Origin: Halomonas sp. GT
Lineage (GTDB): Bacteria; Pseudomonadota; Gammaproteobacteria; Pseudomonadales; Halomonadaceae
Length of the DNA: 64,000 bases
Reading direction: 5' to 3'
Assembly (NCBI RefSeq): GCF_002082565.1
Contig: NZ_CP020562.1
Location: 3,348,001 to 3,412,000, forward strand
Shown here: positions 55,587 through 62,182 of the stretch, one piece after another
Layout: the number at the start of each line of letters is the position of its first letter
Numbering within the stretch: position 1 is the first letter of the stretch
The notes under the pieces: generated by a model
The model's database searches: none
What the model was told of the DNA's origin: nothing
The model's input: the letters and a program-made list of their open reading frames with translations, nothing else
Translations under genes and position numbers: made by a program

Positions 55587-55616
55587 GTGGTGCCGACACC
55601 AGGAGTCGAACCCGGG
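55587..55616. repeat. Distal attachment site (tRNA 3'-end fragment)
   Basis: This 30-bp copy starts GTGGTGCCGACACCAGG and ends CGAACCCGGG, identical to 62153-62182. The next bases differ (GACT here, ACCT at the tRNA). Confidence 0.88.
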
Positions 55617-55787
55617 GACTAATGCACACCAAAAAGACCAATTATTTCGTATAGTTAAGGCAGTTACGCCCACTACATCACCATGAAAAGTGGATCACCC
55701 TAATGGGAGTGGATGAAGTTGGCTCATCCTAGGCTGAAACACTCTTTATGGCAACCAGCTACCGACGGGATACTTAGCAGAATAGAG

Positions 55788-56159
55788 TTAAGACCAGCGC
55801 AGCACACAACTGCTATAAGCTTGCGATTGGAGTTGATCAGGATTCAAATCCAGCTGCCAAGCTTTTAAAAGCTCCTGTCGAGACCAGTCCCAGAATCCAG
55901 GCCAGCGCTCTTCCAGCTGAGACCGCGTTAACTGGTAAGCTTCTATCACCATAGAATCTAATGTTTCGTCTAGGCTTCTTGAACTGGTCTTTTCCCAGCG
56001 ATTTTCGTATCCATTCCAGTAAGTATGGCCACTAATTACCGCTAGTTTTTGAGTCATAACACCACAAGCTTCAGCCGCGTTGTTAGCTTGGACAGGTGCT
56101 GAAAGTAAGACTCCGAGGGTGAGCGCCCATCCTAGAAGATTTTTGTTGGTTTTCTTCAT
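55788..56159 (-). CDS. Exported protein of unknown function, possible cargo
   Basis: A 123-aa protein with a signal peptide (MKKTNKNLLGWALTLGVLLSAPVQAN) and a small mature domain with two cysteines (EACGVM near the start, SSCVLRW at the end), suggesting a disulphide in the periplasm. The central part is rich in Trp, Tyr and charged residues. No family recognised. Start ATG 56159 has GAGGTG six bases before it, and overlaps the upstream gene's stop (ATGA), so the two are co-translated. It lies at the end of the element away from the integrase, where cargo genes are usually found. Confidence 0.65.
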   Translation of the reverse strand: MKKTNKNLLGWALTLGVLLSAPVQANNAAEACGVMTQKLAVISGHTYWNGYENRWEKTSSRSLDETLDSMVIEAYQLTRSQLEERWPGFWDWSRQELLKAWQLDLNPDQLQSQAYSSCVLRWS

Positions 56160-56401
56160 TTTAGCACCTCGCAATTGGTCAACTGTTGGATGCTGAAATA
56201 ACTCGCCGAAATGCCTTCCACCAGCACTGTATGCCCGCGTGTAGGGTGTAAGCAGTTGGATATGGTGAGATCGCCGGTGTCGTCCCTTTTAAAGACTTCC
56301 GAGGCTTCCAGCAGGGTAACGAACTCAACAGCGGTGAGCTGTTGAACCTCGAAGCGTTCGTTGGAATTATCATTTGGCGTGACGATCTGTGGGACTTCCA
56401 T
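56156..56401 (-). CDS. Unknown 81-aa protein, partner of the exported protein
   Basis: A cytoplasmic-looking protein beginning MEVPQIVTPNDNSNERF and ending SIQQLTNCEVLK. A GTG at 56458 would extend it by 19 residues; neither start has a strong ribosome binding site. I give the ATG. It contains two cysteines and no membrane segment, and no family is recognised. Its stop overlaps the exported gene's start. A regulator, chaperone or immunity role is possible but unsupported. Confidence 0.5.
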   Translation of the reverse strand: MEVPQIVTPNDNSNERFEVQQLTAVEFVTLLEASEVFKRDDTGDLTISNCLHPTRGHTVLVEGISASYFSIQQLTNCEVLK

Positions 56402-56608
56402 GCACTTTGTCTCTGCGGCCACTGTAGTTCTTCTCGTATGGTGATGGCGGATTGCCACACGAGAATTTTAATTTAGAAGTATGAGTAAGCGTCTACTTAG
56501 TTTTTATAACAATTTGATATATTAAATTTAATTATTAAATCAATTTAGAGCATGAATATACATTGGCTATTTGCCTTTTCCCGCTTGCGCTGTCTGCTTA
56601 AGCGATTT

Positions 56609-60514: not shown

Positions 60515-62053
60515 TCAGGTGGGAATGTCGATGATGTGAGACCAGTCCAATTTCTCGACCAGCTCTGACAACTTAGGTAGTAAAACACTTTTATCTGACT
60601 TCATAAGGTATTGCCAAGCCTCGCCTGACACCTCCTGCCCCGTGATTAGAGGCACATGGTGAGCCTGCTCAGCGTGCTCGAAAAGCCTCGTAATAACGGT
60701 ATTGCGATACCCGTGAAAATTAGGCTCAATCTTCAAGTGCTGGCGCATCTCACCAAGTCGTTTAGAGACATACTTGCTCCACTTTCCTCGATAGCACGTT
60801 AGAGGAAAAAGCCGCTCTTTCCCCTTTCTGCCTTTAACGTATTCCATGAATCCGAGGCGCACCAGATGAGAATGAATAGGCACGTAGCGCCAAGCATTCG
60901 AGTTTTTCAAACGACGTCCATCCTCACCATGGATGCGATAAGCGAGAACCCCTTTAAAAGTGCTAATGTCGCCAGGGGTCAATGATGCAAGTTCTTCAAG
61001 CCGAGCGCCTGAGTAGAGCGCCAACAGGGGCAACCAGTATCTAGCAACGGTGTCGATGCTTTCGCGATGTTGCAAGTATTCACGAGACTGGAACCACCTC
61101 TTCAACTCGTCATCAGACCAACTTCTTGTTTTGTTTGCGTCTGCCTCCGTGGCCTTGGTAATAGCTGTAAATGGATTCTTTGATAGCTCGTCGATAGTTA
61201 CGAGCCATTGCCCAAAAGTCGTTAACTTTCTGATGTTGTTATTGAACGTCGTCGCTGAAATTCGCGGCCTTTCGATCGCCATCAGATCATCCAGTGACAT
61301 TTTGGCCCAACTCCCCTTTCTGCGCTGGACAGGGTAGTCTCGATATTCGTCAGCAAACTCACGCGCCACGCTCTTGGTCAATTCTTTAACCGACATATCG
61401 CCCATCAGCTCAACGAACACATCGAAGGCATAGCGGTGGGCTGATTTAGTATCATCCGAGCTGTCCCGCTGACGCTCAGTCAGGAACGTTTCGAACAGCT
61501 CACTGAGCATCTTCCCAGCTGGCTTTAACTCCTCCTCTAAGGGCATGGAGAGTTGTGCTTTATTGCCGGATAATTCTCGGTGATGTGCCATTAGCTCTTT
61601 AGCAATGCGTATAGTATTTTCCGGCGTCTCACCTTCAATAATCGGCATACCTGTCACAGGATGAAACGTGACGTATTCTATAGCGACAGAGCCACCATCA
61701 CTCTCGCGATAACCGATAATTGGTTCAACACTGAGAAATCTATACTGCTCGTTTTTTACGTTAGGACGCTCTTCCATGCGAGGTTGTGAAGCATTAGGTA
61801 TAAACGCTAAAGCGCCCCACTCAGGGTTAATTTCTTTCACTGGTAGCCCATTCCTTAAGGCGTCAAACACTTCCTGATAAGTCAGCCATATCGCCACTGC
61901 TCGGCGCTTAGCAGTAGCTTTACAAGAAGTGGAGAGGGTCTTTCGAAACTCTCGGCGCTGCCGAAAGTGTTGCCTGACATCTATGGGGATAACAATCCGA
62001 GCATACCAGTTTGTCTGGTGGCGAGAACGGGTTAGATAGGTTCCGTAAGTCAT
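60515..62053 (-). CDS. Tyrosine-type site-specific integrase
   Basis: A 512-aa phage-type integrase. The C-terminal catalytic domain has Arg in LYSGARLEELASL, HxxR in FHGYRNTVITR, and the nucleophile probably Tyr in EAWQYLMKS. The N-terminal part (TYLTRSRHQTNWYARIVIPIDVR) resembles the DUF6538 domain often fused to such integrases. I place the start at ATG 62053, because an upstream in-frame GTG at 62077 lies within a terminator hairpin. It is 100 bp from the tRNA-Thr attachment site, in the usual position. Confidence 0.93.
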   Translation of the reverse strand: MTYGTYLTRSRHQTNWYARIVIPIDVRQHFRQRREFRKTLSTSCKATAKRRAVAIWLTYQEVFDALRNGLPVKEINPEWGALAFIPNASQPRMEERPNVKNEQYRFLSVEPIIGYRESDGGSVAIEYVTFHPVTGMPIIEGETPENTIRIAKELMAHHRELSGNKAQLSMPLEEELKPAGKMLSELFETFLTERQRDSSDDTKSAHRYAFDVFVELMGDMSVKELTKSVAREFADEYRDYPVQRRKGSWAKMSLDDLMAIERPRISATTFNNNIRKLTTFGQWLVTIDELSKNPFTAITKATEADANKTRSWSDDELKRWFQSREYLQHRESIDTVARYWLPLLALYSGARLEELASLTPGDISTFKGVLAYRIHGEDGRRLKNSNAWRYVPIHSHLVRLGFMEYVKGRKGKERLFPLTCYRGKWSKYVSKRLGEMRQHLKIEPNFHGYRNTVITRLFEHAEQAHHVPLITGQEVSGEAWQYLMKSDKSVLLPKLSELVEKLDWSHIIDIPT

Positions 62054-62061
62054 AGGCACAC

Positions 62062-62093
62062 AAAAAAAGTGGGGCACCGGAGTGACCCACTTT
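62062..62093 (-). terminator. Element-borne terminator behind tRNA-Thr
   Basis: On the minus strand AAAGTGGG pairs with CCCACTTT, and the inner CAC/GTG closes a four-base loop, followed by a T-run. It lies about 60 bp past the tRNA and just before the integrase start. It would stop tRNA transcription from entering the element. Confidence 0.75.
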
Positions 62094-62152
62094 CTTCATG
62101 AAATACTTGGTAAGCTTCTCAAGCCCTTAAAACTTAAGGCTTTAATAACGCT

Positions 62153-62182
62153 GTGGTGCCGACACCAGGAGTCGAACCCGGG
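62153..62182. repeat. Proximal attachment site in tRNA-Thr 3' end
   Basis: Thirty bases identical to 55587-55616, covering the CCA end, acceptor arm and much of the T arm of tRNA-Thr. The tRNA remains complete because the element carries this copy. Confidence 0.88.

What the first reader, a model, noticed from the sequence alone, without database searches (positions are those of the whole stretch)
55587..62182. Compact integrative element with rolling-circle-type replication gene and no structural genes
The stretch has perfect 30-bp attachment repeats, tyrosine integrase at the tRNA end, a serine recombinase, a ribbon-helix-helix-like protein, a HUH/YxxK protein and unknown genes. No capsid, tail, portal, lysis or transfer genes were found. 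This suggests a satellite or dependent element that excises and replicates its circle through a Rep-type nickase. The combination of a tyrosine integrase, a separate serine recombinase and a Rep on 6.6 kb is unusual.
Basis: partly seen in the sequence, partly recalled or inferred. Interest (0 to 1): 0.75.

Follow-up and report, generated by a model that had tools for sequence, protein, structure and literature searches.

The report
Rolling-circle phage satellite with packaging gene
A 6.6-kilobase DNA element in a Halomonas-type bacterium sits in a threonine tRNA gene and carries an integrase, a predicted rolling-circle replication enzyme, a predicted multimer-resolving recombinase and a likely virus-type DNA-packaging gene but no recognised virus-particle genes, so it is likely a hitchhiker on tailed viruses.

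Summary
A 6.6-kb element lies between exact 30-bp repeats (55587-55616, 62153-62182); the right copy is the 3' end of tRNA-Thr(TGT). Of 11 related loci opened at this tRNA, 9 have a single core copy and 2 hold inovirus prophages.

(1) The 188-aa HTH protein (57853-58419) is small-terminase-like: all 12 relatives scanned match phrog_867, whose members directly precede the large terminase in the four phage loci opened. (2) The serine recombinase is preceded by inverted repeats that look like a resolvase res site.

The order serine recombinase - TerS-like - HUH Rep recurs in a Pseudomonas aeruginosa element, in a tRNA-Leu element with type III restriction-modification cargo and in one IMG/VR contig. 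Both of these with a located integrase use the same DUF6538 type. The family is rare.

Best reading: a tailed-phage satellite that likely excises, replicates by rolling circle into multimers, is packaged through its own TerS, and is cut back to monomers by resolvase/res. Excision, helper, packaging and resolution are inferred. It fails tested defining features of PICIs and PICMIs (no AlpA, no primase found), so I rate it a new variant of phage satellite.

The parts
55587..62182 (.). whole integrated element, both repeats included
   Evidence: exact repeats; empty sites in relatives
55587..55616 (.). distal attachment repeat (copy of the tRNA-Thr 3' end)
   Evidence: 30-bp exact repeat
62153..62182 (.). 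proximal attachment repeat, overlapping the 3' end of tRNA-Thr
62154..62229 (-). tRNA-Thr(TGT), intact
   Evidence: ARAGORN, Rfam
60515..62077 (-). tyrosine integrase, 520 aa, DUF6538 N-terminal domain
   Evidence: Pfam
60376..60520 (.). structured intergenic region between integrase and RHH gene; candidate replication origin (untested)
   Evidence: single-strand DNA folding z -3.0 on both strands, reached by 2 and 1 of 200 shuffles
60101..60376 (+). Arc-like ribbon-helix-helix protein, likely repressor
   Evidence: phrog_582 at 4.9e-5
59977..60011 (.). res-like site I (inverted half-sites); conserved with the G013 relative
   Evidence: 26 of 29 bases shared with G013; repeat excess; division into sites is mine
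59920..59959 (.). res-like site II
59890..59914 (.). res-like site III
59262..59876 (-). serine recombinase (SerR), likely multimer resolvase
   Evidence: Resolvase PF00239; 78.5% identical relative in G013
58783..59148 (-). unknown protein, 121 aa
   Evidence: ORF; no family above cut-off
58409..58783 (-). unknown protein, 124 aa, in the place of the 144-aa and 131-aa ORFs of relatives; 15-20% identity only
57853..58419 (-). small-terminase-like (TerS-like) HTH protein, 188 aa
   Evidence: phrog_867 in 12 of 12 members; synteny with large terminase; BLASTP to the G074 protein 3e-5
56609..57781 (-). HUH/YxxK Rep, predicted rolling-circle initiator, 390 aa
   Evidence: invariant motif, PF23343 weak, VIA matches
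56156..56458 (-). unknown ORF, 100 aa, possible cargo
   Evidence: ORF; no family
55788..56174 (-). unknown ORF, 128 aa, N-terminus looks like a signal peptide (by eye), possible cargo
   Evidence: ORF; only sub-threshold matches

Best explanation
It is a 6.6-kb integrative element that likely lives as a satellite of a tailed phage: it would excise with its own integrase, is predicted to replicate as a circle through its HUH Rep, and would steer its DNA into helper-phage heads through a likely small terminase of its own. Rolling-circle replication is expected to give multimers, the usual substrate of headful packaging; the serine recombinase with its res-like site would then cut accumulated or delivered multimers back to monomers that can re-integrate in tRNA-Thr. 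The Arc-like protein likely keeps the element quiet. Shown by sequence: boundaries, empty sites, gene families, recurring gene order, the repeat array before the recombinase gene, and the position of phrog_867 genes before large terminases. Inferred: excision, replication mode, helper dependence, packaging specificity, resolution.
For: Boundaries and empty sites. HUH and YxxK invariant over 8 divergent Reps; VIA ranks two viral Rep-type chains first. TerS-like: all 12 members match phrog_867; phrog_867 genes or close relatives directly precede the large terminase in G074, SSU5, Cyrano (annotated 'Terminase small subunit') and hairong. Recurring order SerR - TerS-like - Rep in OQ658364.1, G636 and an IMG/VR contig, with DUF6538 integrases in the two where an integrase was located. 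Repeat array before SerR in all four members carrying the TerS-like gene (2, 1, 0 and 0 of 500 shuffles reach the observed number of repeat pairs). No virion structural family in the 9 ORFs scanned.
Confidence: 0.58

Rival explanations
1. An integrative plasmid-like element: the circle replicates with the HUH Rep, SerR/res keeps it monomeric, and the HTH protein is a replication, partition or copy-control factor. It would spread by transformation or by generalised transduction, without packaging functions of its own.
For: Rep plus resolvase plus res is a plasmid-like set; nucleotide relatives of SerR are common on plasmids (1255 plasmid records match somewhere in the element DNA, and the 20 rows listed are all in SerR). 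The N-terminal HTH of the 188-aa protein resembles resolvase and transposase HTH domains.
Against: No match to this Rep, to the HTH protein or to three relatives' proteins among 72,556 plasmids. phrog_867 genes sit before large terminases.
Confidence: 0.25
2. A satellite or remnant of a filamentous phage (inovirus): it shares the attachment site with inoviruses and would use their secretion machinery to leave as single-stranded circles made by its Rep.
For: Inovirus prophages occupy the same tRNA-Thr core in 2 of 11 loci opened; Zot is found in 15 of 82 same-genus genomes; rolling-circle Rep.
Against: tblastn of the nine element proteins against those two inovirus loci gave no hit; no Zot in the host genome; a terminase-like protein has no place in filamentous phages (recalled).
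Confidence: 0.08
3. An integrative and mobilizable element whose HUH protein is a relaxase that nicks an oriT and rides a conjugative system.
For: HUH nuclease, integrase and a ribbon-helix-helix protein, which in some systems is a relaxosome accessory (recalled).
Against: The tyrosine (212) follows the HUH motif (163-165), as in Rep proteins; in most relaxases it comes first (recalled). No relaxase family was matched. Structural neighbours are viral Reps.
Confidence: 0.06

Closest known systems
PICI, phage-inducible chromosomal islands (PMC6092414, abstract and passages seen)
   Same: Small integrative island with its own integrase and attachment site, a replication gene, sometimes a terS homologue, no autonomous virion genes.
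   Different: No AlpA and no primase-type replication gene found here; HUH Rep instead, plus a serine recombinase with a res-like site. Helper induction untested.
PICMI, phage-inducible chromosomal minimalist islands (PMC10803314, abstract and passages seen)
   Same: About 6 kb, marine-type host, few genes, reported rolling-circle replication and packaging as concatemers in full-size heads.
   Different: PICMIs sit next to fis, carry int, alpA and prim, and no terS homologue was identified in them; this element sits in tRNA-Thr, has Rep, TerS-like and resolvase, and lacks AlpA and primase.
Resolvase/res systems of plasmids and Tn3-type transposons (recalled)
   Same: Short serine recombinase with inverted-repeat sites upstream of its own gene.
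   Different: Carried by a tRNA-integrated element with a TerS-like gene; resolution not tested.
Inovirus prophages at the same tRNA-Thr (G037, G079)
   Same: Same attachment core, tyrosine integrase.
   Different: Those have pI/Zot, and in G079 also pIV and coat families; none of the nine element proteins finds a relative there.
DUF6538-integrase islands at tRNA genes (L013, L058, L059)
   Same: Same integrase type; a SerR; in L013 and L059 a related but longer Rep.
   Different: No TerS-like hit in those loci; larger and with other cargo or another replication gene (DUF5906/VapE-type in L058).

Membership tests
PICI | own integrase and specific attachment site | tested here: met
PICI | regulator AlpA (Gram-negative) or Stl/Rpr | tested here: not met
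   no AlpA match in the 9 ORFs scanned; an Arc-like RHH protein instead. A diverged regulator cannot be excluded.
PICI | primase/replication initiator (pri-rep) with iteron origin | tested here: not met
   no primase family in the 9 ORFs; replication gene is HUH type
PICI | terS homologue (in some members) | tested here: met
   by remote homology and synteny only
PICI | induction by a helper phage and packaging in its particles | not testable with these tools
   needs experiment
PICMI | integration next to fis | tested here: not met
   integrated in tRNA-Thr
PICMI | int, alpA and prim genes | tested here: not met
   int present; no alpA or primase match
PICMI | rolling-circle replication and concatemer packaging | not testable with these tools
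   only predicted here from the HUH Rep
Inovirus | pI/Zot assembly ATPase and coat protein | tested here: not met
   no such match in the 9 ORFs; no Zot in the host genome
IME | relaxase | tested here: inconclusive
   no relaxase family match; an HUH protein is present with Rep-type motif order
IME | oriT | not tested
   not searched
HUH Rep proteins | HUH motif followed by YxxK tyrosine | tested here: met
   H163, H165, Y212, K215 invariant in 8 relatives
HUH Rep proteins | HUH nuclease fold | tested here: inconclusive
resolvase/res | serine recombinase with inverted sites upstream of its gene | tested here: met
resolvase/res | resolution of direct repeats, no inversion | not testable with these tools
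   needs experiment
small terminase (TerS) | gene directly before the large terminase in phages | tested here: met
   for phrog_867 relatives in four phage loci opened, 1 prophage and 3 of 7 phage records; the element itself has no large terminase
small terminase (TerS) | TerS fold | tested here: inconclusive

The most novel reading that the evidence does not exclude
A family of tailed-phage satellites runs a closed multimer cycle: an HUH Rep spins off multimers by rolling circle, a self-encoded TerS feeds them to the helper's large terminase as headfuls, and a dedicated resolvase with its res site cuts the injected multimer back to monomers for integration in a tRNA gene. Replication, packaging and monomerising genes form one cassette that travels between hosts with exchangeable cargo, including phage defence.
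Probability: 0.35. Interest if true: 0.78.

Novelty: new variant of a known kind. Interest (0 to 1): 0.62.

Why it matters
The phage satellites in the papers I saw (PICI, PICMI) replicate with primase-type proteins; my literature searches listed none that combines an HUH Rep, a TerS and a resolvase. If true, it adds a replication strategy to phage satellites, explains how a 6.6-kb genome could fill a normal phage head without capsid remodelling, and gives a reason for a resolvase in a satellite. It also gives a recognisable signature for small anonymous tRNA islands; one member carries a type III restriction-modification system, so the family may move phage defence.

Tried and rejected
Second integrase: SerR is a short resolvase/invertase-type protein with a res-like array, so I did not keep it as an integration enzyme.

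Inovirus satellite: pursued because two relatives have inovirus prophages in the same tRNA; kept only as a rival because none of the nine element proteins finds a relative in them.

Plasmid relatives: no match for the HTH protein, this Rep, the OQ658364.1 HTH protein, Rep and DNA or the G636 Rep. The element DNA hits 1255 plasmid records; the 20 rows listed all lie in SerR, the rest were not seen.

Phage collections: this Rep none; HTH protein one record, OQ658364.1. IMG/VR: five scans, of which two found nothing and three the same single contig.

Genome searches: Rep in 4 of 82 same-genus genomes, one of them (G011) weak and with internal stops and not used; Rep profile in 4 of 275 family genomes; HTH profile in 24 of 390 order genomes at E 0.001, of which I dropped 22 with partial matches under 27 bits, leaving G000 and G636; 1 of 369 class genomes, the host itself; 1 of 18 in the genus of G636, itself. 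Integrase relatives at E 1e-20 in 6 of 82, the host included. One genome-contig scan: one locus.

TerS by fold: not settled; in the 50 BFVD rows 4 are named small terminases, the rest have other names, generic names or none. Rep by Foldseek: no Rep in the 50 rows shown.

Ends of the OQ658364.1 element: no tRNA and no shared repeat found, although the record marks two 'attL'.

Origin: only one structured intergenic region stood out; promoter and terminator scans did not exceed shuffles. A defence scan gave only a weak pPIWI_RE_Y match (0.0019) for the 128-aa ORF, taken as chance.

Literature: ten full-text searches. Passages only were seen of PMC6092414, PMC10803314, PMC7567579, PMC10111431, PMC12595487 and PMC11131426; outline, abstract and passages of PMC12324425. 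The library lacks most subscription journals.

Full report
OBSERVATION. The coordinates are right. The repeat is exact over 30 bp (55587-55616, 62153-62182; spacing 6,566) and stops there. The right copy is the 3' end of an intact tRNA-Thr(TGT) at 62154-62229(-), followed by tRNA-Gln and tRNA-Phe. The host genome is one 4.16-Mb contig with no second copy of the element. G+C is 0.491 against 0.516 for the rest of the window. The genus is Vreelandella (formerly Halomonas, recalled): same-genus genome G002 has the Rep locus on a contig of 229,119 bp, the length of the Vreelandella alkaliphila DSM 16354 contig found.

EMPTY SITES. All 82 same-genus genomes match the flanks somewhere; I opened 11 loci at this tRNA. 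Nine have one core copy in the stretch fetched. In seven the left flank (from 55512-55521 on) runs through the core into the right flank; in L062 only about 33 bp of left flank align and in L061 none. All nine are identical over the 47 bp right of the core, but these are the rest of the tRNA gene, so this says little. The other two, G037 (L052) and G079 (L057), have two core copies 11.3 and 11.2 kb apart around inovirus prophages: both hold Zot, and pI, pIV and coat families were shown for G079. So this tRNA is used repeatedly and this element is a strain-level insertion.

GENES. From the tRNA inward: integrase with DUF6538; divergent Arc-like RHH protein; serine recombinase; unknown proteins of 121 and 124 aa; HTH protein of 188 aa; HUH Rep; unknown ORFs of 100 and 128 aa, the possible cargo.

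TERMINASE-LIKE PROTEIN. The 188-aa protein matches phrog_867, named only 'DNA binding domain', at 3.7e-11, as do all 12 family members at E up to 0.01. Context tells what phrog_867 is. In the genus one other genome, G074, has it at 1e-6, in a prophage where it abuts the large terminase, followed by portal and major head protein. The G074 protein hits 7 phage records. I opened 3, and in each the gene directly precedes the large terminase: SSU5, Cyrano (annotated 'Terminase small subunit') and hairong. Window and G074 proteins align at 3e-5 with 23% identity and share a C-terminal stretch around LPEL-V-R-LT. I read it as TerS-like. Fold evidence does not settle it.

SERINE RECOMBINASE AND RES. 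Before the gene lie inverted TGTATCG-type half-sites, which I group in three (59977-60011, 59920-59959, 59890-59914). The nearest SerR relative (78.5%, in G013, in an element with a DUF5906/VapE-type gene) keeps a 29-bp part of the first group at 26 bases. Of 500 dinucleotide shuffles, 2 reach the observed number of repeated 6-mer pairs; for OQ658364.1, the IMG/VR contig and G636 it is 1, 0 and 0, for G013 1, and for two SerR genes in islands without a TerS-like hit (L013, L059) 451 and 154. By a second statistic, highest copy number of one 6-mer, the figures are 1 (window), 9 (G013), 163 (OQ658364.1), 0 (IMG/VR), 17 (G636), 500 and 123; so the OQ658364.1 array is the weakest. A resolvase with res implies a circular form that multimerises.

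RECURRING MODULE. (a) Phage record OQ658364.1 from P. aeruginosa PACL: its first 7.7 kb looks like a separate element with a DUF6538 integrase in two frames, SerR, a 144-aa ORF, TerS-like 208 aa, HUH Rep 287 aa, and a DUF3800 gene; its ends are not established. (b) G636: tRNA-Leu(CAG) and an exact 17-bp repeat 13.6 kb apart enclose a DUF6538 integrase, type III Mod and Res, SerR, a 131-aa ORF, TerS-like 188 aa and Rep 400 aa. (c) IMG/VR contig 2713897254_000008: SerR, TerS-like, Rep, near an AlpA gene and, by eye, tail and lysis genes. With the window that makes four, two with both ends defined. Six of six integrases scanned in these and neighbouring elements carry DUF6538 above cut-off.

MECHANISM. 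Every step beyond sequence is inferred. The strongest inference is TerS-like, since it turns an anonymous island into a candidate satellite; the weakest is multimer packaging, which rests on logic: a rolling-circle Rep makes multimers, terminases package them, a resolvase removes them. PICMIs, of similar size, are reported to replicate by rolling circle and to be packaged as concatemers without an identified terS (PMC10803314, passages). No helper is known. The host has a large-terminase locus that I read by eye as P2-like and no Zot.

MEMBERSHIP. Not a PICI or PICMI by tested features (no AlpA, no primase found), not an inovirus. It works like a phage satellite in the inferred sense; I call it a new variant of that kind.

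LIMITS. TerS homology is remote; all evidence is sequence; two of four members are not delimited; the library of papers is partial.

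Noticed in passing
L052:1910-13262 (G037) and L057:2741-13927 (G079): Inovirus prophages integrated in the same tRNA-Thr core as this element, with two core copies each; Zot is present in 15 of 82 same-genus genomes.
   Followed up: partly
L104:1-7684 (OQ658364.1): The deposited P. aeruginosa phage genome seems to include a separate 7.7-kb integrative element at its start, with most of that element's genes unannotated.
   Followed up: partly
L058:2051-9352 (G013): Another element with a DUF6538 integrase, a DUF5906/VapE-type gene and a SerR 78.5% identical to the window's, with a similar res-like array, ending near tRNA-Ser: the SerR/res cassette is shared with a different replication module.
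   Followed up: partly
L094:1-9925 (IMG/VR 2713897254_000008): The SerR - TerS-like - Rep set lies downstream of genes that look by eye like phage tail and lysis genes, with an AlpA gene between; possibly a satellite inside or beside a prophage.
   Followed up: no
L013, L014, L059: Larger islands in Vreelandella alkaliphila, G038 and G188 carry a longer Rep relative divergent from a SerR, with restriction- or ATPase-like genes by eye; tRNA-Leu and a DUF6538 integrase in L013 and L059.
   Followed up: partly
window 55440-55503: A 30-nt inverted repeat with 4-nt loop (87% complementary) just left of the element, outside its boundary.
   Followed up: no
L117 (G000:C1:1071835-1076538): The host genome has a large-terminase locus with P2-like order by eye; a candidate resident prophage, not shown to be a helper.
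   Followed up: no
L103:7462-9357 (G074): In this prophage both terminase genes are split over overlapping frames; the genome is listed as 74% complete.
   Followed up: no
window 55788-56174: The 128-aa ORF has a signal-peptide-like start and a weak match to a pPIWI defence accessory family (0.0019), probably chance.
   Followed up: no
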